DNA of 64,000 nt from Streptomyces sp. HUAS 15-9. Lineage in GTDB: Bacteria > Actinomycetota > Actinomycetes > Streptomycetales > Streptomycetaceae. Under the pieces are notes generated by a model. The model saw only the letters and a program-made list of their open reading frames with translations, did no database searches and was not told where the DNA came from. Position 1 is the stretch's first letter; every line of letters begins with the position of its first letter. The DNA lies in contig NZ_CP106798.1 in NCBI RefSeq assembly GCF_025642155.1, positions 8,184,001 through 8,248,000 of the forward strand. The letters are read 5' to 3'. Both the position numbers and the translations under genes were made by a program. Shown piece after piece: positions 11,321-22,226 of this stretch.

Positions 11321-12580
11321 GTGACGAATCCAAGGTTGGCCTCGGCGCTGGACATCGCCCCTCTGCCACCACGGGCACCACTGCCGACGCACCATGACGA
11401 GCCCGTGCTGGACGTGGCGGTGCCGGTGTTCAACGAGGAGACGGACCTTGAGCCGAACGTACGGCGGCTGCATGCGCATCTGCGGGAGACGTTCCCCTAC
11501 CCGTTCCGGATCACCGTCGCGGACAACGCCAGTACCGACGCGACCCCGCGGATCGCCGCGCGCCTCGCCGAAGAACTGCCCGAGGTGGAGTGGATACGAC
11601 TGCGGGAAAAGGGGCGCGGCCGGGCGCTGCACGCGGCCTGGTCGGGGTCGCGGGCCCCTGTCGTCGCGTATGTCGATGTGGATCTGTCCACCGGTCTGGC
11701 GGCGCTGCTTCCCCTCGTCGCCCCGCTGATCTCGGGCCACTCCGACCTCGCCATCGGCACACGTCTGGCCCCCGGCTCACGCGTGGTCCGCGGGCCCAAG
11801 CGGGAGGTCATCTCGCGCGGTTACAACGCCCTGTTGCGCTGCACGCTCGCCGTGGGGTTCTCGGACGCCCAGTGCGGATTCAAGGCCGTACGGCGCGACG
11901 TCGCCGAGCGGCTGCTGCCCCTCGTACGCGACTCCGGCTGGTTCTTCGACACCGAACTGCTGGTGATCGCCGAGCGGGCCGGGCTGCGTATCCATGAAGT
12001 GCCGGTCGACTGGATCGACGACCCGGACAGCCGGGTCGACATCCGTGCCACCGTGCTCGCCGATCTGCGCGGCATCGCCCGGGTCGCCAGGGCGTTGGCC
12101 CGTGGCACGCTCCCATGGGCCGCGCTGACTCGCAGCAGAGCCGACGATCCACCCGACGGGCAGACCAGGCAACTGACGTGGTGCGCGGTCATAGGAGTGG
12201 CGAGCACACTCGCGCATCTGCTGCTGTTCATGGCGCTGCGCCCGGCCGCCGGGCAACAGGCCGCCAACGCCCTTGCGCTGCTGGCCTGTTCGATCGTCAA
12301 CACGGCCGCCAACCGGCGACTCACCTTCCGGCTGCGCGGTCGGCACGACGCCCTGCGCCATCAGGCCAGAGGACTGGTGACCTTCGTCGTGGGCCTGACG
12401 CTGACGGCGGGCTCGCTCGCCGCCCTGCACCTCGCGGCGCCCACGGCCGGCCGCGGCGCCGAACTCGCCGCACTGGCCGCCGCCCATCTCTCCGTGGCGC
12501 TGCTGCGGTTCCTGCTCATGCGGGCCTGGGCGTTCCGCGCCCGGCCCCGCCGACACCTGACGGGACCCGCCACTTCATGA
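11321..12580 (+). CDS. GT2 glycosyltransferase fused to a GtrA-like membrane domain
   Basis: 419-residue two-domain protein. Residues ~30-270 are a dolichol-phosphate-mannose-synthase-type GT2 domain: VAVPVFNEETDLEPNVRRL, DNASTDATPRIA, the metal-binding D119-V-D121 in YVDVDLSTG, and FDTELLVIAERAGLRIHEVP. Residues ~285-415 are four hydrophobic helices typical of GtrA-like flippase proteins (TWCAVIGVASTLAHLLLFMAL, then NTAANRRLTFRL). Such fusions make and move polyprenyl-phosphate sugars. GTG 11321 with AAGGA upstream is preferred to the ATG at 11288. It overlaps the next gene by ATGA. With the sigma factor and anti-sigma-like gene it may build an envelope glycan or glycosylate secreted proteins. 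Confidence 0.88.
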   Translation: MTNPRLASALDIAPLPPRAPLPTHHDEPVLDVAVPVFNEETDLEPNVRRLHAHLRETFPYPFRITVADNASTDATPRIAARLAEELPEVEWIRLREKGRGRALHAAWSGSRAPVVAYVDVDLSTGLAALLPLVAPLISGHSDLAIGTRLAPGSRVVRGPKREVISRGYNALLRCTLAVGFSDAQCGFKAVRRDVAERLLPLVRDSGWFFDTELLVIAERAGLRIHEVPVDWIDDPDSRVDIRATVLADLRGIARVARALARGTLPWAALTRSRADDPPDGQTRQLTWCAVIGVASTLAHLLLFMALRPAAGQQAANALALLACSIVNTAANRRLTFRLRGRHDALRHQARGLVTFVVGLTLTAGSLAALHLAAPTAGRGAELAALAAAHLSVALLRFLLMRAWAFRARPRRHLTGPATS

Positions 12581-13857
12581 ACACCCGTACCGACCCGACG
12601 CCGACCTTCACTCCGGCTGCTCTGCCCGGCCAGGAACCAGAACACCCGTCGCCCCCGACTCCCGGCCCGAGCCACCGCATACGCGAGACGGCCCGTCACT
12701 ACGCTCCCGCCCTGGCCCTGTACGGCGCCCTGAAGCTCATCGGCTTCTGCACCTTCATGTACCTGCTGCACTCCGCAGGGGACTACCGGACGAAGCACCC
12801 ACGGTTCGGCGGCGGAGCACATGCCTGGGACGTCCTGGGCACCTGGGACGGCTGGTGGTACCAGCAGATAGCGATGCACGGATACCACCCGGAGCTCGTG
12901 CCGGTGCCCGGTGCCACGGGTCTGATCACCCTCCAGGGCAACGCGGCGGCGTTCTTCCCGCTCTACCCCGCGTTGATGCGGCTCACCTCCGAGATCACCG
13001 GACTCGGCCCGTACGGCGCCGGCTTGCTGGTCTCCGTCGTCGCCTCGTTCGTCGCGGCCATGGGGATCTTCGCGGTGGCCGAACTGCTCGGTGGCCCGCG
13101 GGCCGGGTTGGCCGCGGCCGGCCTGTGGGCCGTATGGCCCGGTTCCGGCGTGGAGTGGGCGGTCTACTCCGACTCCCTCTACGTGGCTCTCGCCGCCTGG
13201 GCCTGCTACGCCGTACTCACCCACCGCTGGCTCACCGCGGGTCTTCTCACCTGCGCGGCGGGACTCAACCGCCCGACGGCCGCCGCCCTGATCGCGGCGC
13301 TCGCCGTCGCCGCGGCCGGCGCACTGCGCCACCGCCGCGACGGTGTCCTGCGCCCGCTGGCCGCGATGGCCCTGGCACCGCTCGGCCTGCTGGGGTACCT
13401 GGCCTGGGTCGGCCACCGAATGGGCGACTACGGCGGCTACTTCAAGCTCCAGGCCGGTGCCTGGGCGCATGAGTTCGACTACGGCCGGCAGACCCTGGAC
13501 GTGCTGACATCCGTCCCGGTGGGCCACTTCGACTACCTCTTCGCGTTCCCCTTCGAGGACGTCATCGGCGTCGCGACGGTCCTGCTGGCCCTCGCACTCA
13601 TCCCCCTGCTGATCCGGCTGCGGCCCCCGGTGGTGCTGGTCGTCCACACCGTCCTCACCATCGCCCTGGTCCTGGGCAGCCAGCAGATCTTCGGCAACGT
13701 CTCCCGCTATCTGCTCCCGGCCTTCCCGCTGTTCATCCCCCTCGCCATGGCCCTGCGCCGTCTGAGCCTGCCCCTCCAGTGCACGCTGCTCGGCATCGCG
13801 GCACTGGCCTCCGGCTCCTACGCGGGCTATGTCCTCTTCGAACTCGGGGTGCCGTAG
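12577..13857 (+). CDS. PIG-V/PMT-like integral membrane mannosyltransferase
   Basis: 426-residue membrane protein with 9-11 helices. The loop after helix 1, LGTWDGWWYQQIAMHGY, carries the acidic/aromatic signature of the PIG-V-type GT-C mannosyltransferases, which use lipid-linked mannose on the outer face. Other marks are FFPLYPALMRL and YSDSLYVALAAWACYAV. It starts at ATG 12577, overlapping the GT2-GtrA stop (ATGA), so it is translationally coupled to the enzyme that probably makes and flips its lipid-linked sugar donor. A possible acceptor is the Ser/Thr-rich membrane protein two genes upstream (inference). Confidence 0.88.
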   Translation: MNTRTDPTPTFTPAALPGQEPEHPSPPTPGPSHRIRETARHYAPALALYGALKLIGFCTFMYLLHSAGDYRTKHPRFGGGAHAWDVLGTWDGWWYQQIAMHGYHPELVPVPGATGLITLQGNAAAFFPLYPALMRLTSEITGLGPYGAGLLVSVVASFVAAMGIFAVAELLGGPRAGLAAAGLWAVWPGSGVEWAVYSDSLYVALAAWACYAVLTHRWLTAGLLTCAAGLNRPTAAALIAALAVAAAGALRHRRDGVLRPLAAMALAPLGLLGYLAWVGHRMGDYGGYFKLQAGAWAHEFDYGRQTLDVLTSVPVGHFDYLFAFPFEDVIGVATVLLALALIPLLIRLRPPVVLVVHTVLTIALVLGSQQIFGNVSRYLLPAFPLFIPLAMALRRLSLPLQCTLLGIAALASGSYAGYVLFELGVP

Positions 13858-14562
13858 TCAGCCGGCGTTCCAGCCCGGCACCGCCGGCAGCACCCGCTCT
13901 TCGACGCGGAACAACGCGGCGTCGTCGGGCGGCACGTCGTCCTGGCGCCAGATGGTCACCTCGAAGGTGCCGCCGCCGTCCTTGGGGTTCCTGGCGACCG
14001 TCAGGCAGCGGGCGATGCCCCCGGGTCCGGTATCGGCCTTGTTGCCGTTGAACGTGATGGCGATGGTCTGGTCCGAGTAGAGGACCGCCGGGTGCCCCAG
14101 GACGGTTTGCTTCTGCGCGTTCCGGCCCATGAGGTCGGCCGTCTCGGTGACCGAGAGATCGTCGTAGGAAGCCGAGAGCTTCACGGAGTAGGTCGGCAGC
14201 GCCACGTCCGCCTCGGGAGTGGCGATCCTGGTGCCGCCGGCGAGCTTGAACTCGCTTTCGCCGCCCGATGCGGTTTCCGCCTGCTCCGCCGGCGTTCCCA
14301 GCAGCCTGGGCAGGTCCGGACGGTTCAGCGCCGTGCACAGCCGCGCCCCGGACACACGCTTCGACGACTGCCTCTTTTTTGTATGAGCGCTCGAGGTGTC
14401 CGTGCTCGAGCGCACGGCCGGTCCGCTGTCACCGCCGCTGTTCCCGGAGACTTCATCCAGCCCCCACATACCGCCTATCAGGCCTCCCACCAGCACTACT
14501 GCCGCCGTTGCCCGGACCCCCGCACTCGGGCCCTTCTCGGATTCGGCGAAATCGTCGGCCAT
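13858..14562 (-). CDS. DUF6215-like membrane-anchored protein
   Basis: 234-residue protein with a short cytoplasmic N-terminus, one membrane helix (residues ~17-36, RATAAVVLVGGLIGGMWGLD) and an extracytoplasmic domain. Two cysteines (RLCTALNRPDL and IARCLTVARN) may form a disulfide. The start MADDFAESEKGPSAG and the layout match a Streptomyces family I know as DUF6215. Function unknown. It ends directly against the mannosyltransferase stop (convergent). Confidence 0.72.
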   Translation of the reverse strand: MADDFAESEKGPSAGVRATAAVVLVGGLIGGMWGLDEVSGNSGGDSGPAVRSSTDTSSAHTKKRQSSKRVSGARLCTALNRPDLPRLLGTPAEQAETASGGESEFKLAGGTRIATPEADVALPTYSVKLSASYDDLSVTETADLMGRNAQKQTVLGHPAVLYSDQTIAITFNGNKADTGPGGIARCLTVARNPKDGGGTFEVTIWRQDDVPPDDAALFRVEERVLPAVPGWNAG

Positions 14563-14850
14563 GTCCCCCCCACCTTGCTGTTCGCGCCCTATGCGTGTGC
14601 TGCGGAGCCTGATCGGTGATCATCTCGTGGGGAAACAGAGTTGTGACTGTGAAGATCGGGCATGTGGCGCACCTGAGTTGGGCGGACGCGATGCCGAAGG
14701 CCGTGCCGTCGTCCCGGCCGCCTCACCGACCACGACACACCGCACGAACAACGCATGACTGTGGCCGGATTAGTCGTCTGACGGGTGTTCGAAGCCGGTG
14801 ATACTCAGGGCTGGGCAATCCGCCCGATTTCCTACGTCCGGAGGCTGCTG

Positions 14851-15051
14851 ATGCCCCAGACCAGTGTTCACACCGCCGCAGTGCTCGACGCCTGGCTGTC
14901 GGGTGCCGAGAGCGCGTACGGCCAGATCAACCCCGCCGGGCCGCTCTACGTCGGCGGTGCCGCCGCCGAGGCTGCGCTCACCGACCCGAGCGACTCCCTC
15001 TACGGCTTCTGTTCCAGCCCGAGCGGGTCGCGCGGCAGTTGGTGCTGCTGA
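14851..15051 (+). CDS. Candidate class II lanthipeptide precursor peptide
   Basis: 66-residue peptide upstream of the lanM gene. The N-terminal ~43 residues are leader-like: MPQTSVHTAAVLDAWLSGAE, then NPAGPLYVGGAAAEAAL. The C-terminal end SLYGFCSSPSGSRGSWCC holds Cys54, Cys65 and Cys66 and many serines, which a LanM could dehydrate and join to the cysteines as lanthionine rings. A GG at residues 35-36 is a possible but unusual processing point. ATG 14851 has CGGAGG eight bases upstream; a longer start at 14785 would add 22 non-leader-like residues. Small NPAGPL..GG peptides with Cys-rich tails (DUF6229-type, from memory) sit beside lanM genes in other actinomycetes. No transporter or leader peptidase gene is adjacent. 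Confidence 0.68.
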   Translation: MPQTSVHTAAVLDAWLSGAESAYGQINPAGPLYVGGAAAEAALTDPSDSLYGFCSSPSGSRGSWCC

Positions 15052-15250
15052 TCGCCGGGGGCGTCACCAGACCCTGGGGCGCCACCACGCAGTGAGGTCC
15101 GAAGACAGGAGCGTGGGGAACCGCCTGCCGAGCACGGCCGGTCGCGCGGTTCCCCGCGTTGGTCCGGGGCGCCTGACAGGGCGCGGACGCGCGGCGGAAT
15201 GCGGCAGGCGGAATGCGGGATGCGGCTCGCGGAATGGGGACGGTGGACGG

Positions 15251-18133
15251 GTGAGCGGATCGGCGCCGGAGCAGACGGAACAGTCGGATCAGGCTGACGA
15301 GACGGGAGGGGGAAGACAGAGCGACGAGACGGAGTGGTTCACCCAACCCGTACGCCGCATCGCCCGTCCCTGGCGAGAGGAACTGGCCCGGCGGCTGACT
15401 GCCATCGACGCCTTGGGCCCGGCGGAGCGGGACGTGGTGCTGGAGGCCGGCCACACCGCCCTGCTCAGGTCCCTGCACGCGAAGCTGTCCCGGATGTTCC
15501 TGATCGAACTGCACGCACTGCGTATGGCGGCGGGGGCCGGGCCAGCCGACGAGGGCGCGGAAGGGGCCGGTCCCGATACAGGAACATGGGCCGCCTTCAT
15601 CGAGCAGGCCTGCGAGGAGGGCTATCTCGACCAGTTGGCCGGCCGATACCCCACCGTCGGCTCGCGGATCGCGGCCGTGGCACGGCTGTCGGTGGCGGCG
15701 ACAGCGGGCTTCGCCGAACGGCTCGCCGCGGACCGCGAGTTGCTGTGGCCGCTGCTGGGGGCACCGGCGGGGGAACTGCGAGAAGTCGCGTTCGGAGCGG
15801 GCGACAGCCACCGAGGCGGGCTGACCGTCAGCCGGGTGGACTTCGCCGGCGGAGGCGTCATGTACAAGCCCCGGCCGTCCGAGGCCGATGTGGCGCTGGG
15901 CGCCCTGCTGGACGAGCTGTATGAGGGCTTTCCCGGTGCCCCGGCGCCGCACGAGCGTATCCGGGTGCCGCGCACGCTGGCGCGCAAGGGCTACGGCTGG
16001 GCCGAGTTCGTCCGCCACCGCTACTGCGCGAACGACACCGAACTGACCGCGTTCTACCGCAACATCGGCCACTGGCTGGCCGTACTCCGCTTCACCGGCG
16101 GCACCGACATGCACGCCGAGAACATGATCGCCGCGGGACCGGTGCCGGTGATCGTGGACGCCGAGACACTCTTCGACGCCCCCGCGCCCTTCCCGCCCAG
16201 CGGCCGGGGCGACGCCGTGGACGTGGCCGCCGCGGCCATCCGCCGTACGGTGCTGCGTACCGGACTGCTGCCCGTACGCGGCACCGGCTTCGCGCTCGGC
16301 GGGGTGGACATCTCCGGAGTCGGGGCGCTGCCCGGCCAGCAGCCGCTGATCCCGAATCCGGTGATCGCGGACGGCGGCACCGCCGAGGCCCGCTTCGAGG
16401 TGGACCTGGTGGCCATGCCCGGCGCGGGCAACCACCCCAGCCCCACTCCGGTGTTGAGCACGTACTGGGACCGGATCCTGGCGGGCTTCCGCGAGATGAC
16501 CGCGTATCTGTACGGGCCCGGCATCGACCCGCATCTGCTGCTGCGCCGCTTCGAAGGCGCTCAGGCGCGACGGATCCTGCGGCCCACACAGGCGTACGTC
16601 GACATCGGCCGGATGCTGTGGCACCCAGCCTCGTTGCACGACGAGGCGGCGGCGGTCGAGCGCGCCCGGGACATCCTGCTGCGCAACGCGGAGGTGCTGC
16701 CCGGCGCACCGACGGACCGCGCGGCGATCGACGGCGAGATCGCTGAACTCCTCGCCGGCGACGTACCGATGTTCACCTTCACCGTGGACGCGGCGGCCGT
16801 ACGGACCACGGTCGAGGACTGGCGCACCGCCGACCTGGCGCTGGAGGAGTCGGTGATCCAGGACGCGCTGGTGGGCGCCTACCTCAATGAGCGTTCCCTG
16901 CCCGCGCGGGTGCAGGAGGCCGCCCGTGACCCGCACGCCCGTGACCGGGAGCGGCGCCGCCGTGAGCTGGCCGCGCGGATGGTACGGCGGCTGTGCGACG
17001 GTGCGGTGCGCGGCGAGGACGGCACGGTCACCTGGATCAGCCCCGTCTTCACCCCGGCCGGGTGGTCCATCAGGGTGCTCCCCGCCGACCTCTACACCGG
17101 GCAGGGCGGAGTTGCCCTGACCCTCGCGGAGTATGTGACCGAGGCGCGGGCAGGCAGGGCGGACCAGGTGCCGGGCGTCGCCGAGACGTACGAGGGGGCA
17201 CTACGGGTGCTGATCGGCACCGAGGACAAGACGCCGACCCCGTCGCCCGGGGCCTTCAGCGGTGCCGCCTCCCAGGTGTGGACGTGGCTCGCGCTGCACC
17301 GGGTGCTCGGTGAGGACCGGCTGCTGGAGCGGGCCGCCGAAAGGGCGCTGCTGCTCGCCGAGGGGCGACTGGTCGAGGACGACATCGAGGTGGACCTCCT
17401 CAACGGGGCGGCCGGCGGAATCGTCCCCCTGCTCAACCTGGCAGCGGAGACCGGACAGGACCGCTGGCTCGGCGCCGCCGCGCACATCGGCCGCCGGCTG
17501 GCCGGGCTGGTCACGGTCGACGCGAGCGGCGCCCGCTGGATGACCCGGCTCAACCCCGAGGGAATCGGCGGGTTCGCCCACGGCGCCACCGGAATCGGCT
17601 GGGCGCTGACCCGGCTCGCCCTGAGCGACGCGGGTTCCGCGGCGGAACGGCGCGGCTGGACCCACCTCGCTGAACAGGCCTTCGCCTACCAGGAGTCCCT
17701 CTACCAGCCCGAGCACGGCAACTGGCTCGACGTACGCGTCGGCGCCGAGGAGGACTTCTTCACCAGTTGGTGCCACGGCAGCGCGGGCGTCGGCATCGGC
17801 ATGCTCGACCTCCACCGGCGTACGGGCGATCCCGCCCATCTCGACATGGCCCGGCGCGCGGCACGCGCCTGCGCCGCCGAGGGGTTCGGCTGGAGCCACA
17901 CCCTGTGCCACGGCGACCTCGGCCTCTGGGAGTTTCTGACGTCGATGAACTTCGGTGACCCGGCCGACCTCGACGGCGAGATCCTCACGGGCCTCGAACA
18001 ACGCGGCCCGGTCGGCGGCCTGGCCCGCGAAGCGTTCTCACCCAGCCTCATGTCCGGACTGTCAGGCGTCCTCCACACCCTGCTCCGTATGCACCCCGCG
18101 GCCACCTTGCCCAACCCTCTGCTCCTGGACTGA
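15251..18133 (+). CDS. lanM: Class II lanthipeptide synthetase LanM
   Basis: 960-residue bifunctional enzyme. The N-terminal DUF4135 dehydratase (to ~residue 560) uses ATP to phosphorylate and eliminate Ser/Thr of a precursor; it contains GGGVMYKPRPSEADVALG, WAEFVRHRYC and TGGTDMHAENMI (His288). The C-terminal LanC-like cyclase (from ~residue 600) adds Cys thiols across the dehydro residues; its zinc ligands are visible as Cys841 (SWCHGSAGVG) and Cys886-His887 (LCHGDLGLWEF). Length is at the normal LanM range. GTG 15251 is chosen because the reading frame upstream of it overlaps the precursor gene and is low-complexity Arg/Pro-rich. It follows the candidate precursor by 199 bases. No lanT, protease or tailoring gene follows; downstream is gene debris. 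Confidence 0.93.
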   Translation: MSGSAPEQTEQSDQADETGGGRQSDETEWFTQPVRRIARPWREELARRLTAIDALGPAERDVVLEAGHTALLRSLHAKLSRMFLIELHALRMAAGAGPADEGAEGAGPDTGTWAAFIEQACEEGYLDQLAGRYPTVGSRIAAVARLSVAATAGFAERLAADRELLWPLLGAPAGELREVAFGAGDSHRGGLTVSRVDFAGGGVMYKPRPSEADVALGALLDELYEGFPGAPAPHERIRVPRTLARKGYGWAEFVRHRYCANDTELTAFYRNIGHWLAVLRFTGGTDMHAENMIAAGPVPVIVDAETLFDAPAPFPPSGRGDAVDVAAAAIRRTVLRTGLLPVRGTGFALGGVDISGVGALPGQQPLIPNPVIADGGTAEARFEVDLVAMPGAGNHPSPTPVLSTYWDRILAGFREMTAYLYGPGIDPHLLLRRFEGAQARRILRPTQAYVDIGRMLWHPASLHDEAAAVERARDILLRNAEVLPGAPTDRAAIDGEIAELLAGDVPMFTFTVDAAAVRTTVEDWRTADLALEESVIQDALVGAYLNERSLPARVQEAARDPHARDRERRRRELAARMVRRLCDGAVRGEDGTVTWISPVFTPAGWSIRVLPADLYTGQGGVALTLAEYVTEARAGRADQVPGVAETYEGALRVLIGTEDKTPTPSPGAFSGAASQVWTWLALHRVLGEDRLLERAAERALLLAEGRLVEDDIEVDLLNGAAGGIVPLLNLAAETGQDRWLGAAAHIGRRLAGLVTVDASGARWMTRLNPEGIGGFAHGATGIGWALTRLALSDAGSAAERRGWTHLAEQAFAYQESLYQPEHGNWLDVRVGAEEDFFTSWCHGSAGVGIGMLDLHRRTGDPAHLDMARRAARACAAEGFGWSHTLCHGDLGLWEFLTSMNFGDPADLDGEILTGLEQRGPVGGLAREAFSPSLMSGLSGVLHTLLRMHPAATLPNPLLLD

Positions 18134-18181
18134 TGGATGGCAGCGGCGGTGTCAGTGGCGGCTGCTTTCATGGCTTTATGA

Positions 18182-18260
18182 ACACCGAACTGGGGCACGC
18201 TCACCGGCGCCGTGTGCTTCTCGCTCGGGGGCCTGCTCCAGCTCTTCGAACACCCCTAGG
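18182..18260 (+). pseudogene. Fragment of a small membrane protein C-terminus
   Basis: After an in-frame TGA at 18179-18181 the sequence reads NWGTLTGAVCFSLGGLLQLF and ends EHP-TAG at 18260. It resembles the last helix of a small membrane protein (YrhK-like in flavour) with no start codon or upstream coding region. Probably debris; too short to be certain. Confidence 0.35.
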
Positions 18261-18340
18261 GGGCCGCAGGGCGACTCGGCCGACACCCACTTACGGCGAG
18301 GACAGCGAGAAGCACCCCGCAGTCCTCGCCGCGAGGGCCG

Positions 18341-18553
18341 TCATAGCAGGGGTGGGGCGGGGGGAAGCGCAGGGTGCGACGGCATGGCCGGTCTGGCAAC
18401 CGGCGTGCCGGTCTCGAAGGAACCGATGGAGTGCCCCGTCCGCATCACTGCCTCGAGGTCGCGCCGTATGCTCGCGGCAGCGTCGCGGACCCGCGCGGGC
18501 ACGTCACCGCGCTCGGCAATGAGCTGGTGATAGATGGGGGCGTCCTGAAACAT
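18341..18553 (-). CDS. Small conserved Streptomyces protein of unknown function
   Basis: 70-residue protein starting MFQDAPIYHQLIAERGDVPA, then RVRDAAASIRRDLEAVMR and a Pro/Ala-rich tail ending PALPPAPPLL. The first 40 residues resemble a widespread short actinomycete family (M-F-x-D-x-PIY-x-QL-x-AERGD pattern, from memory) with no known role. ATG 18553 with GGAAGG upstream is preferred; longer starts add 43 residues without that pattern. It lies in a region of gene debris but appears intact. Confidence 0.65.
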   Translation of the reverse strand: MFQDAPIYHQLIAERGDVPARVRDAAASIRRDLEAVMRTGHSIGSFETGTPVARPAMPSHPALPPAPPLL

Positions 18554-18702
18554 GGGCAACGTGGCCTTCCGATCGGCGGTTTCAACCGCTTTGCAACGGC
18601 TGCCGAGTGTACGGCCCCCCATCACCACCCGTGTCCGCGGGATCGCCCCCTGAGATGCCGACGCCGACAACTCCGCTCGCACTGATCAAAGAGGGAATTC
18701 CC

Positions 18703-19241
18703 ATGCCTGAGGAACGATCAGGGGTCGACTTGTCCTCGACCGGTTTCGACGCCGCACGGTGCGCCACCGACCTTGGTGTGTACCGGGCCTGGCCCACGGG
18801 ACGTTTCGCATGACTCGACACCGCGGGCGAACCACTTGCCGCACAGGTCACCGGGCTCAACGCCCTGGCGGCAGCCCTTGCGGCCCATGACCTGACGCTG
18901 CCGCGGGACTTCATGACCTTTCAGACCGGCGCCGACCCGTACCTCGCGCTGGACGAGGTTTCGGTGACCGGCTGCTGGTCCGACGTCTCGCAGCCGCTGC
19001 CCCGTCCAGTGGAGCCTGGTGCCTTCCTCGTGCGGTTTCTGCGTGATCAGCAGGACTACGTCATCTGTCACCTCTACCACCGCCCGGCGCACATCTCGAC
19101 CACGAGTACGAGGCACGGTGCGACGGGGAAGGGACGGAGACCGAACTCGACGATGCGGAGGAGCAGCGGGCCGCCATCCTCTGGTGCGCGCCGTCGTTCG
19201 AGGAGCAACTGCGTGACTGCTTGCGGCACTACGCCACCTGA
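18703..19241 (+). pseudogene. Broken unknown Streptomyces gene: nonsense codon plus frameshift
   Basis: ATG 18703 opens MPEERSGVDLSSTGFDAARC and meets a TGA at 18811-18813. The same frame continues LDTAGEPLAAQVTGLNALAA, LTLPRDFMTFQTGADPYLAL and VTGCWSDVSQPLPRPVEPG to about 19086 (YVICHLYHRP). There the frame must shift to read DHEYEARCDGEGTETELDD and AILWCAPSFEEQLRDCL, ending at TGA 19241. Together they form one recognisable acidic cytosolic protein of unknown function common in Streptomyces. At least two lesions, possibly also a shortened end, indicate decay. Confidence 0.8.
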
Positions 19242-19259
19242 AGTCCCTCAGCCTGACGT

Positions 19260-20000
19260 TCAGGACAGCGCCGAGCGCCTGGGCGGTGGTGGCATCGCGC
19301 GCAGCAGTTCCCACAGGGGGCGCGAGCCGGAGGCCCACACGCCCAGTGTCCGGCGGTCGACGACATGCAGGCGCTGCTGCTTGGCGAACGCGACCGCCGG
19401 TGCGGTGACTCTTCCGTTCGTCACGATCACCGCGACGTCCGCCCCGTGCACCTGCCGGGCCGTCCCGTTGAGCACCTGAAGATCCGGCGTGCCAACGGCC
19501 GAGCCCCGGACCCCGTCGCGGCGGTGCTTGCACTGGATCACCCAGCGCCGCCCGTAAGGGTCCGTCGCCTTCACGTCCGCGCCCAGATCGCCACCGCCGC
19601 CGACCCGCTGAGCGTCCGCACAGCCGTCCCTGCGCATCAGGTCCCGTACCGCGTCCTCGAACCGGGCATGATGCAGCGCGTCCAACTGCAGCAGCGCATA
19701 CCTCAGGCCCTGTGCGCGAACGGCCTCCCATCGGGCCCGCTGTTGCCGGTTGTAGAACCAGCCGACGGCTGCGAGCGCGGCGAGCACCAGGCCGACGACC
19801 AGGACCCACCAGTGCGCCAGCAGCCAGTTGACCACCGTCACCACCACGCCGATCACTGCGACGCCTGCCACGAGAAGGCCGATCAGCTGGGCGTCCCGCT
19901 GCTTTTGTCGCCGCCTGCCGGGCCGCCGAGTACGCCGCCGCGCGGGCGAGCGGCGCCGGGTCACCGCTGCGTCCCGGCGGAGCGGAAGTGGACCGGACAC
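19260..20000 (-). CDS. Membrane-anchored Mrr-type restriction endonuclease-like protein
   Basis: 246 residues: an Arg-rich cytosolic N-terminus, two membrane helices (residues ~38-80), and a C-terminal Mrr_cat nuclease fold. The motif FEDAVRDLMRRDGCADAQRV, GGGGDLGADVKAT and WVIQCKHRR gives the expected catalytic D-(Q/E)xK set (Asp of GADV, QCK). Mrr-type enzymes cut modified or foreign DNA; membrane-anchored versions are common in Streptomyces but their role is unproven. No methyltransferase partner adjoins. ATG 20000 is the first good start. It is convergent with the broken gene at 18703. Confidence 0.85.
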   Translation of the reverse strand: MSGPLPLRRDAAVTRRRSPARRRTRRPGRRRQKQRDAQLIGLLVAGVAVIGVVVTVVNWLLAHWWVLVVGLVLAALAAVGWFYNRQQRARWEAVRAQGLRYALLQLDALHHARFEDAVRDLMRRDGCADAQRVGGGGDLGADVKATDPYGRRWVIQCKHRRDGVRGSAVGTPDLQVLNGTARQVHGADVAVIVTNGRVTAPAVAFAKQQRLHVVDRRTLGVWASGSRPLWELLRAMPPPPRRSALS

Positions 20001-20189: not shown

Positions 20190-20987
20190 GTGACCCAGGA
20201 CGGCGTGCGTGCCGACGAGATAGACACCAGCAGGCCGCATCCTGCCCGGATCTACGACTACCTGCTGGGCGGCAAGGACAACTACGAGGTGGACCGCGAG
20301 GCCGGTGACGAGCTCGCCGCCGCGGCGCCCGAGGCACGGATCGGTGTACGGGCCAACCGCGCCTTCATGCAACGGGCTGTCCGGCACGTCGTGGGCAGCG
20401 GTGTCCGACAGATCCTCGACATCGGTACCGGGCTGCCCACCTCGCCGAACGTGCACGAGATCGCTCAGGCGGCGGCACCGGACGTGCGCGTCGCGTACGT
20501 CGACAACGATCCGATCGTGAGCGCGCACGGCAACGCGCTGCTGAGCCACTCCGGCAAGACCAGCATCGTGCTCGGCGACCTGCGCGACCCGCGCGCCATC
20601 GTGGATCACCCCGACGTCCGCCAGGTCATCGACTTCGACGAGCCGGTCGCCCTGCTCCTCGTCGCCGTCCTGCACTTCCTCACCGACGCGGAGCAGCCCG
20701 CGGAGGTGGTCGCCACCCTGCGCGACGCGCTCCCGCCCGGCAGCTTCCTGGTGCTCTCGCATGCCACGGGCGACTTCGCCGATCGCAGTGGAGCGCAGGC
20801 TGTCTACAACAAGGCCACAGCCACGCTGAATCTGCGCTCCCGCGCCGAGGTGGAGCGATTCCTCGACGGCTTCGAGCTCATTGAGCCCGGCCTGGCCCAG
20901 GTCCCGTTCTGGCGCCCGGACGTCCCGCCACCGGCCAGATCCGCCGAGATCGGCTTCTACGGGGGCGTGGCGCGCAAGGCCGGCTGA
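20190..20987 (+). CDS. SAM-dependent methyltransferase (PF04672 family)
   Basis: 265-residue Rossmann-fold protein of the actinomycete family formerly DUF574. Signature start RPHPARIYDYLLGGKDNYEV; SAM-binding loop ILDIGTGLPTSPNVHEIA; acidic end of strand 2 VAYVDNDPIV; LHFLTDAEQPAEVVATL near the active site. These are paralogous in Streptomyces and their substrates are unknown. GTG 20190 is preceded by GAGAGGAGCGCG. Monocistronic. Confidence 0.92.
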   Translation: MTQDGVRADEIDTSRPHPARIYDYLLGGKDNYEVDREAGDELAAAAPEARIGVRANRAFMQRAVRHVVGSGVRQILDIGTGLPTSPNVHEIAQAAAPDVRVAYVDNDPIVSAHGNALLSHSGKTSIVLGDLRDPRAIVDHPDVRQVIDFDEPVALLLVAVLHFLTDAEQPAEVVATLRDALPPGSFLVLSHATGDFADRSGAQAVYNKATATLNLRSRAEVERFLDGFELIEPGLAQVPFWRPDVPPPARSAEIGFYGGVARKAG

Positions 20988-21024: not shown

Positions 21025-22089
21025 TCACATTCGGCCAGGGCCTCCTGCTTCCGGATCCGCGCCCGGGTGAACGGGCGGAACAGGTATGTGGGATGCCGGC
21101 TGCCCGGGCCAGGGGAACGGCGTCGGCGCAACGGGCAAAGGCCCGTACGGTGCGGCGAAGGGGACCGGTGGCGCGGGGGGAGGGAGCGGCGCAGGGGCCG
21201 TACGGACCGGCGGACGGCGGCGCGTCAGCCACACCACCGCCGCCGTGTACAGGGCCACGCTCGCGACGTCGAGTGCCACGATCTGCCAGCCCGCGTCGGC
21301 GGCGGTGTCGTCGCTCTTGAGCCCGTCGACGACGGCGGCCGAGAGCCCGAAGGCGACGAGGTTGTTGACCGTGTGCAGCGCTATGGCCGCCTCCAGACCG
21401 CCGGTGCGCCAGGTCAGCCAGCCCGCCGTCATCCCGACCACCACCAGGTCGGCGAAGCCCCAGGGCGTGCCCCAGCCGTGCGCGGCGGCGAACAGGAAGG
21501 CCTGGGGCAGCAGCGCCCACCAGGGCGAACGCAGGAACGCGCCCACTGCCTGCGTCAGCCAGCCACGGAAGACATACTCCTCGGCGGCCGCCTGCAACGG
21601 CACCAGTACGACGAGCATGGCCAACGCGGGCACGAACACATCCCAGCCCGCCCACCGGGACTCCGCCCCGTCGTCCGCGGGCAGCAGGAGCATGCCGCCC
21701 ATCGCCAGGCCGAAGACGGGCGCGGCCACTGCCCCGCACAGGGCGAGCCAACGCCATCTCAGCCTCCCGGTGACCGAGGAGAGCGTCCCCGCCGGGCGTC
21801 GACCGATCCAGCGCACGGCCAGCAGTACGACAGGTGTCCCCGCGGCGATGAGCAGCAGGCTGACGGCGGTGTCCGGCACGGGGCCGAACTCCACTGTTCC
21901 GTCCGGCGCTTCGGGGTACCCCTCACTGGAGCCCCAGCCGGAGATGACCGCGTCGAGCACGCCCACCGTGATCATGTAGGCAACGGCCATGAACAGGGTC
22001 CCCACCAGCGGACGCCACCATCGGTACCGCACCGAGAGCCGGGCCAGCCGATGGTAGGGGAGTGGTTGGGGAAGCAGCGGATGTGTCAT
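21025..22089 (-). CDS. CPBP family intramembrane metalloprotease
   Basis: 354-residue membrane protein of the CAAX protease/bacteriocin-processing family (Abi, PF02517). The Glu-Glu motif AAAEEYVFRGW (Glu170, Glu171, Arg175), His204 in FAAAHGWG and His239 in ALHTVNN are the expected catalytic set. Eight or so helices; the C-terminal ~60 residues are Pro-rich and cytosolic. ATG 22089 begins MTHPLLPQPLPYHRLARL; an in-frame start at 22125 is possible. Substrate unknown. It lies 7 kb from lanM, so a link to peptide maturation is not supported. Confidence 0.9.
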   Translation of the reverse strand: MTHPLLPQPLPYHRLARLSVRYRWWRPLVGTLFMAVAYMITVGVLDAVISGWGSSEGYPEAPDGTVEFGPVPDTAVSLLLIAAGTPVVLLAVRWIGRRPAGTLSSVTGRLRWRWLALCGAVAAPVFGLAMGGMLLLPADDGAESRWAGWDVFVPALAMLVVLVPLQAAAEEYVFRGWLTQAVGAFLRSPWWALLPQAFLFAAAHGWGTPWGFADLVVVGMTAGWLTWRTGGLEAAIALHTVNNLVAFGLSAAVVDGLKSDDTAADAGWQIVALDVASVALYTAAVVWLTRRRPPVRTAPAPLPPPAPPVPFAAPYGPLPVAPTPFPWPGQPASHIPVPPVHPGADPEAGGPGRM

Positions 22090-22226
22090 ACCGGCAGCTT
22101 GCCTGCCGGCTCCCTGCTCCGGCATCGCCCTGCGGCACGACCGGTGCCTCTATCGCTGGGTAGGGACCGGTCTCGGTCCGAGGGCAGACGTCCTGCGCCC
22201 GGGTTCCGCATACGCTCGTGGGCGAC

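What the first reader, a model, noticed from the sequence alone, without database searches (positions are those of the whole stretch)
14851..18133. Compact class II lanthipeptide locus with an unusual Cys-Ser-rich precursor
A complete LanM (zinc ligands Cys841, Cys886, His887; dehydratase motif around His288) follows a 66-residue peptide whose end SLYGFCSSPSGSRGSWCC supplies three Cys and many Ser. The leader has a PAGPLYVGG block rather than the common ELxxVxGG pattern, and no transporter, protease or tailoring enzyme is adjacent. Maturation and export would need genes elsewhere. The product would have a terminal Cys-Cys, allowing overlapping rings.
Basis: partly seen in the sequence, partly recalled or inferred. 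Interest (0 to 1): 0.72.

Follow-up and report, generated by a model that had tools for sequence, protein, structure and literature searches.

The report
Two-gene lanthipeptide cassette, known precursor family
This Streptomyces locus is a real, self-contained pair of genes, a small precursor peptide and the enzyme expected to staple it into rings, belonging to a known precursor family (DUF6229) but to a little-studied branch that seems to have lost one of the family's rings as a unit.

Summary
In detail: a 66-aa peptide (14851-15051) precedes a complete LanM (GTG 15251 to 18133, 960 aa). The peptide is no orphan: it is a strong member of Pfam DUF6229 (77.7 bits, cut-off 25), a precursor family with one structurally solved product, rhodanocin. 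A homologue lies upstream of lanM in 50 of 52 related loci. In 34 distinct Streptomyces genes the core is nearly invariant (dN/dS 0.059; 0.42 for residues 2-26). The conserved unit is promoter-lanA-lanM: a conserved promoter-like block (14762-14806) precedes it, and flanking DNA mostly differs (24 upstream flank types in 32 loci). No exporter or protease is conserved beside it; an NHLM-type exporter lies about 229 kb away. The sister clade matches rhodanocin's Thr6/Cys8/Cys11/Thr12/Ser14 spacing; in this clade Thr6 and Cys11, the two ends of one rhodanocin ring, are both absent (Gly52, Pro57). Across 110 distinct cores, Ser/Thr6 is present in 73 of 75 with Cys11 and 0 of 35 without, but this reflects only one or two evolutionary events. 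New variant of a known kind; chemistry, export and function untested.

The parts
14762..14806 (+). Conserved promoter-like block TGGCCGGATT..TCTGAC-17-GATACTC; -35-like 14777-14782, -10-like 14800-14805
   Evidence: Conservation begins near 14750-14760 in 34 aligned upstream regions and hardly any column further upstream is conserved; pattern in 32 of 35 loci (window included) with 65-66-aa precursors, 0 of 16 others. Not found by the sigma-70 scanner, which needs 9 of 12 matches; promoter role is inferred.
14840..14844 (+). Ribosome-binding site GGAGG of lanA
   Evidence: Sequence; GGAGG upstream of 51 of 51 precursors examined, window included.
14851..15051 (+). lanA: 66-aa DUF6229 lanthipeptide precursor
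   Evidence: PF19740 77.7 bits, cut-off 25; homologues upstream of lanM in 50 of 52 loci.
14929..14958 (+). Leader signature NPAGPLYVGG (residues 27-36)
   Evidence: dN/dS 0.006 over 34 distinct Streptomyces lanA; N27-L32 invariant in a 14-sequence family alignment.
14992..15048 (+). Core region, residues 48-66 DSLYGFCSSPSGSRGSWCC (native cleavage site unknown); predicted ring residues Cys54, Ser58, Ser60, Cys65/66; Gly52 and Pro57 stand where rhodanocin has Thr6 and Cys11
   Evidence: dN/dS 0.059; position coupling; rhodanocin rings from PMC9576775 section 15.
15251..18133 (+). lanM: class II lanthipeptide synthetase, 960 aa, GTG start; dehydratase motifs GDSH 184-187, YKPR 205-208, TDMHAEN 285-291, VDAETLF 302-308, RPTQ 444-447; cyclase zinc ligands Cys841, Cys886, His887
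   Evidence: TIGR03897 488.5 bits; PF13575 and PF05147; aligns with solved LicM2 6ST5 over residues 97-960 and, in the dehydratase, with CylM 5DZT; motif positions.

Best explanation
A stand-alone class II lanthipeptide cassette. One promoter drives lanA and lanM; LanM binds the DUF6229 leader, dehydrates Ser/Thr of the C-terminal core and adds Cys54, Cys65 and Cys66 to give lanthionines. By homology with rhodanocin the most likely links are Cys54 with Ser60 (Cys on the N-terminal side) and Ser58 with Cys65 or Cys66, with the remaining Cys joined to one of Ser55/56/63 or free; the first rhodanocin ring (Thr6-Cys11) is absent because both of its partners are absent in this clade. Leader removal and export are done in trans by unlinked proteins, the chromosomal NHLM-type C39-ABC exporter being one candidate. 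The product is probably a secreted antimicrobial or signal peptide. Shown here: genes, families, motifs, linkage, conservation, cassette boundaries. Inferred: promoter role, modification, ring pattern, export route, activity.
For: Family matches; alignment with solved LanM enzymes; YKP and WCHG in 48 of 48 related LanM rows (rows were chosen by having DxHxEN and a second CHG, so those two motifs are present by construction, and 5 of 53 sequences were dropped for lack of such a frame); precursor upstream of lanM in 50 of 52 loci, the exceptions being a contig fragment that starts inside lanM (L054) and a 31%-identity Labilithrix LanM (L063); purifying selection on the core; conserved promoter-like block; 561 of 561 cassette pairs align, whereas 10 of 496 upstream and 11 of 561 downstream flank pairs do; T-x-C-x-x-C-T-x-S of the sister clade has the spacing of rhodanocin Thr6/Cys8/Cys11/Thr12/Ser14, and counting from the Asp in Dyella silvae and Fulvimonas relatives gives these numbers; of 110 distinct cores, Ser/Thr6 in 73 of 75 with Cys11 and 0 of 35 without, Cys8 in 109, Ser/Thr12 in 110, Ser14 in 109 (spacing is fixed by the search pattern, 15 of 177 peptides did not fit it); NHLM-type exporter genes in the own genome.
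Against: No product is known. The ring inference rests on one solved relative whose sequence I did not see, and none of 177 peptides nor those of 34 further loci shows its full spacing with Thr18 and Cys23; the C-terminal part of rhodanocin therefore has no match here, and Ser58 to Cys65/66 spans 7-8 residues against 11. The coupling of positions 6 and 11 rests on one well-supported event (two on the best tree), so the Fisher p of 1e-26 is not a valid significance; other positions also differ between the clades (offsets -8, +6, -10). Some dehydratase motifs are not universal in the relatives: GD(S/T)H 43 of 48, DxET 37 of 48, (R/K)P(T/S) 42 of 48; the window's LanM has all. A C39 peptidase occurs in 6 of 6 Streptomyces with the cassette but also in 28 of 34 in which the peptide search found none, so it gives no co-occurrence support. 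The rhodanocin precursor's possible double-Gly site was not cut by LahT150 (that this is a C39 protease domain is recalled).
Confidence: 0.75

Rival explanations
1. Same class II lanthipeptide cassette, but with a ring pattern unlike rhodanocin: with Pro57 in place of Cys11 the three Cys are re-paired, for example as small C-terminal rings Ser58/Ser60/Ser63 to Cys65/Cys66.
For: Five Ser between Cys54 and Cys65 allow many pairings; DUF6229 is reported to hold at least two groups with different ring patterns (PMC9576775 passage); 27 Lysobacter class II precursors, 21 of them DUF6229, fell into six families that appear to differ in topology (PMC11451712 passage). No peptide here shows the full rhodanocin spacing.
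Against: Position 12 is Ser/Thr in 110 of 110 distinct cores, Cys8 and Ser14 in 109 each, at the same spacing in both clades (the spacing is fixed by the pattern).
Confidence: 0.33
2. The product is an intracellular or developmental signal peptide rather than a secreted antibiotic: no exporter, protease or immunity gene is conserved beside it, and the core hardly varies.
For: No neighbour family conserved beyond 5-6 of 53 sequences; core dN/dS 0.059; single copy in the own genome.
Against: Antimicrobial lanthipeptides with conserved targets may also be invariant (general knowledge); unclustered proteases are known for lanthipeptides (PMC8960859, start of abstract); the rhodanocin fragment had weak activity against K. 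pneumoniae (126 uM, PMC9576775); sporadic distribution (6 of 199 genomes of the genus with a convincing match to this peptide, own included) argues against a core developmental role.
Confidence: 0.25
3. Decaying or silent locus without a working product.
For: No linked export or processing genes conserved.
Against: Strong purifying selection on core and leader signature, intact LanM motifs, conserved promoter-like block.
Confidence: 0.03

Closest known systems
Rhodanocin (LanII of Dyella sp. 333MFSha; DUF6229 precursor WP_043693394.1; PMC9576775)
   Same: Same Pfam precursor family, class II lanthipeptide, possible GG motif; positions 8, 12, 14 and a C-terminal Cys retained.
   Different: Thr6 and Cys11 (first ring) absent; shorter C-terminal segment ending in Cys-Cys; Actinomycetota. 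Its LanM was not compared; LanM of two Oleiagrimonas (Rhodanobacteraceae) is 40-41% identical (L059, L060).
Group B DUF6229 precursors (core S/T-x-C-S-S-C-T/S-G/A-S...CC; Streptomyces, Kitasatospora, Myxococcota)
   Same: Leader, gene order in the 12 Streptomyces loci, LanM 53-55% identical there, Cys8/Ser14/terminal CC.
   Different: Retain Ser/Thr6 and Cys11; 0 of the 12 loci carry the full promoter pattern. LanM of the Kitasatospora and Myxococcota members was not examined.
Lysobacter DUF6229 precursors, incl. the one in the deposited lysobactin cluster (PMC11451712, PMC9576775)
   Same: Same leader family; class II clusters.
   Different: Authors report other Cys/Ser/Thr positions; DUF6229 relatives seen here include differently spaced cores such as CGTAC.
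Mersacidin/lichenicidin family type 2 lantibiotics
   Same: Class II LanM; one database source gives this name to a close homologue (P0009).
   Different: No NCBIfam model matched the peptide at E up to 1.

Membership tests
Class II lanthipeptide biosynthetic locus | LanM: fused DUF4135-type dehydratase and LanC-like cyclase | tested here: met
   TIGR03897 488.5 bits over cut-off 304; PF13575 and PF05147
Class II lanthipeptide biosynthetic locus | Cyclase zinc ligands Cys-Cys-His and dehydratase motifs in this LanM | tested here: met
   Alignment with LicM2; motif positions
Class II lanthipeptide biosynthetic locus | Adjacent precursor with leader and Ser/Thr/Cys core | tested here: met
Class II lanthipeptide biosynthetic locus | (Methyl)lanthionine in the product | not testable with these tools
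   Needs expression and mass spectrometry
Class II lanthipeptide biosynthetic locus | Linked LanT with C39 peptidase (usual, not universal) | tested here: not met
   The only C39 match of the genome is at G000:C1:7969337-7969732, about 229 kb away; tblastn with that protein hit 4 of 53 cassette sequences, in the ATPase part only
DUF6229 (PF19740) | Profile match over curated cut-off | tested here: met
   77.7 bits, cut-off 25, residues 7-66
Rhodanocin subgroup | Thr6-Cys11 ring partners | tested here: not met
   Gly52 and Pro57 at these positions; 0 of 35 distinct cores without Cys11 have Ser/Thr6
Rhodanocin subgroup | Cys8-Ser14 and Thr12-C-terminal Cys partners | tested here: inconclusive
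   Residues Cys54, Ser60, Ser58, Cys65/66 present; Ser58-Cys65/66 distance 7-8, not 11; links not testable
Mersacidin/lichenicidin family | NCBIfam model match | tested here: not met
   No NCBIfam hit for the peptide at E up to 1

The most novel reading that the evidence does not exclude
A self-contained promoter-lanA-lanM cassette that has spread among streptomycetes and amycolatopsids without a conserved export or immunity gene, making a near-invariant peptide in which one ring of the rhodanocin scaffold was lost as a unit (both partners together), leaving interlocked rings with a Cys placed before its dehydroalanine; maturation is delegated to a widespread unlinked C39 exporter (NHLM type in this genome), so one exporter would serve several unlinked RiPP cassettes.
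Probability: 0.2. Interest if true: 0.62.

Novelty: new variant of a known kind. Interest (0 to 1): 0.42.

Why it matters
It gives a conserved two-gene system in which loss of a lanthionine ring seems readable from sequence and can be tested: putting sister-clade and this-clade precursors through their LanMs would show whether ring topology in DUF6229 is set by residue pairs and whether the remaining rings form without the first. It also poses a clean question of how a lanthipeptide with no conserved linked transporter or protease is matured.

Tried and rejected
Chance ORF: rejected (family match, conservation, linkage). Mersacidin-type leader: no NCBIfam match. Conserved neighbouring genes: two clusterings. 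Beyond lanM and ORFs overlapping the peptide on either strand, one search gave one family in 6 loci and three: two in 6 loci, scattered in position and strand, and one in 5 loci (about 710 aa, all minus strand, 44-4605 bp downstream; L018, L021, L032, L033, L034, which also share a downstream flank type). RNA families 12000-20000: none. Sigma-70 and terminator scan of 14500-15300: none; the promoter claim rests on conservation only. Rhodanocin's own precursor: its full spacing was found neither among the peptides of 34 loci L069-L102, which include 30 loci of the survey in which 33 of 147 genomes had a DUF6229 match, nor among 177 other peptides; a protein search with the Dyella silvae relative found 10 proteins, all of that type. 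Its numbering is taken from the paper. Fisher test of the coupling: reported, not treated as significance because of common descent. Structure prediction was not run: a single-chain LanM model would not show the peptide bound.

Limits of counts: the lanM loci came from a scan with short patterns of this LanM, so close relatives are favoured. The A1 search scored 7989 candidates and found 268 proteins, of which the 120 listed were used; this makes 126 proteins, which are 90%-identity clusters. Of 177 peptides 15 did not fit the core pattern (10 CGTAC type, 3 with garbled frames, 2 truncated) and were left out of the coupling count. The 2 of 75 cores with Cys11 that lack Ser/Thr at position 6 have Thr one residue earlier (P0094, P0098). 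In the first LanM tree rows L025, L051 and L052 seem to have been taken in a wrong frame (long branches); one search repeats it with frames chosen by motif, dropping L013, L044, L053, L054 and L061, and still warns of long branches (L063, L060, and a join inside group B). The precursor tree has 10 of 148 inner branches well supported. The survey used this one peptide as query and may miss group B precursors; its seventh genome (G118, 33% identity) is not counted as a true match (no Cys-Cys core in its frame).
Full report
What is there. The window is 64 kb of a 9.26-Mb contig (G000:C1:8184001-8248000); the genus, Streptomyces, is inferred from the nearest named loci. A 66-codon ORF starts at 14851 behind GGAGG (14840-14844) and ends at 15051; a LanM gene follows from GTG 15251 to 18133.

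Identity. The peptide matches PF19740 DUF6229 with 77.7 bits against a cut-off of 25 and no NCBIfam model. LanM matches TIGR03897 with 488.5 bits over 304, carries PF13575 and PF05147, and aligns with LicM2 (6ST5) over residues 97-960 and, in the dehydratase, with CylM (5DZT). The own genome has no second DUF6229 match over the cut-off.

Relatives. A scan of genome contigs with LanM gave 52 loci; 50 carry a DUF6229 precursor upstream on the same strand. The two without are a contig fragment that starts inside lanM (L054) and a 31%-identity Labilithrix protein (L063). The precursors fall into three sets: A, core ..LYGFCSSPSGSxGSWCC with small changes (36 loci, of which two Amycolatopsis have LYAFCSSP(S/T)GSHGSWCC, plus the window); B..TxCSSC(T/S)GS....CC (12 Streptomyces loci, small changes); C, two Oleiagrimonas. 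In a LanM tree of 48 rows A is one side of a branch (support 100) and so is B (86), with a long-branch warning inside B. Among 199 genomes of the genus (own included) 7 matched this peptide, one of them not a true match, so the cassette is sporadic; a phylum-wide survey with the family model found one genome over the cut-off, the own one, among 396, against 33 of 147 in the family of Oleiagrimonas.

Selection. Over 34 distinct Streptomyces lanA genes of 66 codons, dN/dS is 0.42 for residues 2-26, 0.006 for 27-36 (NPAGPLYVGG), 0.081 for 37-47 and 0.059 for 48-66. Cys54, Ser55, Ser56, Pro57, Gly59, Ser60, Gly62, Ser63, Cys65 and Cys66 are invariant in these 34; residue 58 is Ser (32) or Thr (2).

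A cassette. Alignment of 260 bp upstream of 34 group A genes shows hardly a conserved column up to about 14750 and strong conservation from there to the start codon. The block contains TGGCCGGATT, then TCTGAC, 17 bp and GATACTC; the whole pattern is found in 32 of 35 loci with 65-66-aa precursors, window included, and 0 of 16 others (2 Amycolatopsis, 12 group B, 2 Oleiagrimonas). After the LanM stop, sequences differ at once between most loci. In group A with an intact lanM frame, four-kilobase flanks fall into 24 types in 32 loci upstream and 26 types in 34 loci downstream, while 561 of 561 cassette pairs align; the window's own flanks match no other locus. The unit is therefore promoter-like block, lanA and lanM. 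Whether it moved or the chromosome arms around it were rearranged is not decided.

Rings. In rhodanocin, the one DUF6229 product with a solved structure that I found, NMR gave Thr6-Cys11, Cys8-Ser14 and Thr12-Cys23, with Dhb18; the peptide had been cut by AspN, and its possible double-Gly site was not cut by LahT150 (PMC9576775, section 15 read in full; discussion passage). The rhodanocin sequence is not in the text I could read. Counting from the Asp of Dyella silvae and Fulvimonas relatives (DIAL(V/L)(S/T)xCSSCTAS..) gives Ser/Thr6, Cys8, Cys11, Thr12, Ser14, the same numbers; but these relatives end in Cys-Cys at 19-20, and no peptide I examined has the full spacing with Thr18 and Cys23. 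In these coordinates the window peptide has Gly52 at 6, Cys54 at 8, Pro57 at 11, Ser58 at 12, Ser60 at 14 and Cys65/66 at the end. So the two partners of the first rhodanocin ring are both absent and the others present.

Coupling. Over 110 distinct 24-residue tails Ser/Thr at 6 occurs in 73 of 75 with Cys11 and in 0 of 35 without; of 23 offsets tried this is the only one with such separation, though others also differ between the clades. The two exceptions have Thr one residue earlier. On a tree of 151 precursors built without the two residues there are only 2 changes of Cys11 and 3 of position 6, one independent pair on well-supported branches and two on the best tree, so this is a suggestive joint loss and no statistical proof. 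A Streptacidiphilus precursor (LMAFCSSPTGS.., P0047) and one with Ala at 11 and Gly at 6 (P0062) keep the rule.

Export. No exporter or protease family is conserved near lanM; tblastn with the genome's C39-ABC protein hit 4 of 53 cassette sequences, in the ATPase part only. The own genome has one C39 peptidase match, about 229 kb away, in an NHLM-type set (TIGR03796 1019 bits, TIGR03797 889 bits, TIGR03794 161 bits, each over its cut-off). A C39 match is found in 6 of 6 tested Streptomyces with the cassette and in 28 of 34 others: available, but not specific; whether those are NHLM sets was not tested. That NHLM systems export double-glycine leader peptides is recalled, not tested here. The GG after NPAGPLYV is not kept in distant relatives (141 of 174), which speaks against a family-wide GG cleavage site.

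Literature. DUF6229 occurs in 2 papers of the library, rhodanocin in 1, and none of five core or leader strings in any; a search for orphan LanM loci without a transporter and one for unclustered export were read as listings only. I read section 15 and passages of PMC9576775, and passages of PMC11451712 and PMC7268733. The text of PMC7268733 holds no 'CSSP'; supplementary files could not be read, so this group may be listed there. I found no description of the Pro57 subgroup in print within these searches.

Verdict. A sound finding whose interpretation is right in kind. The precursor is a member of a known family, the subgroup is a new variant by its missing ring pair and cassette organisation, and the chemistry and function remain to be shown.

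Noticed in passing
G000:C1:7964746-7970622 (L067:4747-10623, minus strand), outside the window: NHLM-type peptide export set (C39-ABC, second ABC, HlyD-like) in the own genome; a C39 match is present in 34 of 40 Streptomyces tested.
   Followed up: partly
G000:C1:8284121-8285458 (L068:9122-10459, minus strand), outside the window: A second LanC-like protein (445 aa, PF05147 69 bits) with no dehydratase domain in that ORF, below the cut-offs of the three lanthipeptide synthetase models it matches; its neighbours were not worked out.
   Followed up: partly
window 21028-22125 (-) and 20190-20984 (+): Rce1-like CAAX protease and a PF04672 SAM methyltransferase 2-3 kb downstream of lanM; neither is in a family found in 5 or more related loci.
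   Followed up: partly
L088, L098, L100 and L072 (genomes of the family of Oleiagrimonas): Some genomes carry two to four DUF6229 precursors with very different cores (for example ..TTQSCASGCICC or ..TTCSVGRGCACC), sometimes in tandem; L072 has a core without a Cys-Cys end (..LRCDTIVAQYCFG).
   Followed up: no
P0118 (Wenjunlia vitaminophila): DUF6229 precursor in which Cys8 is replaced by Leu while Cys11 and Ser14 remain: a possible loss of another ring.
   Followed up: no
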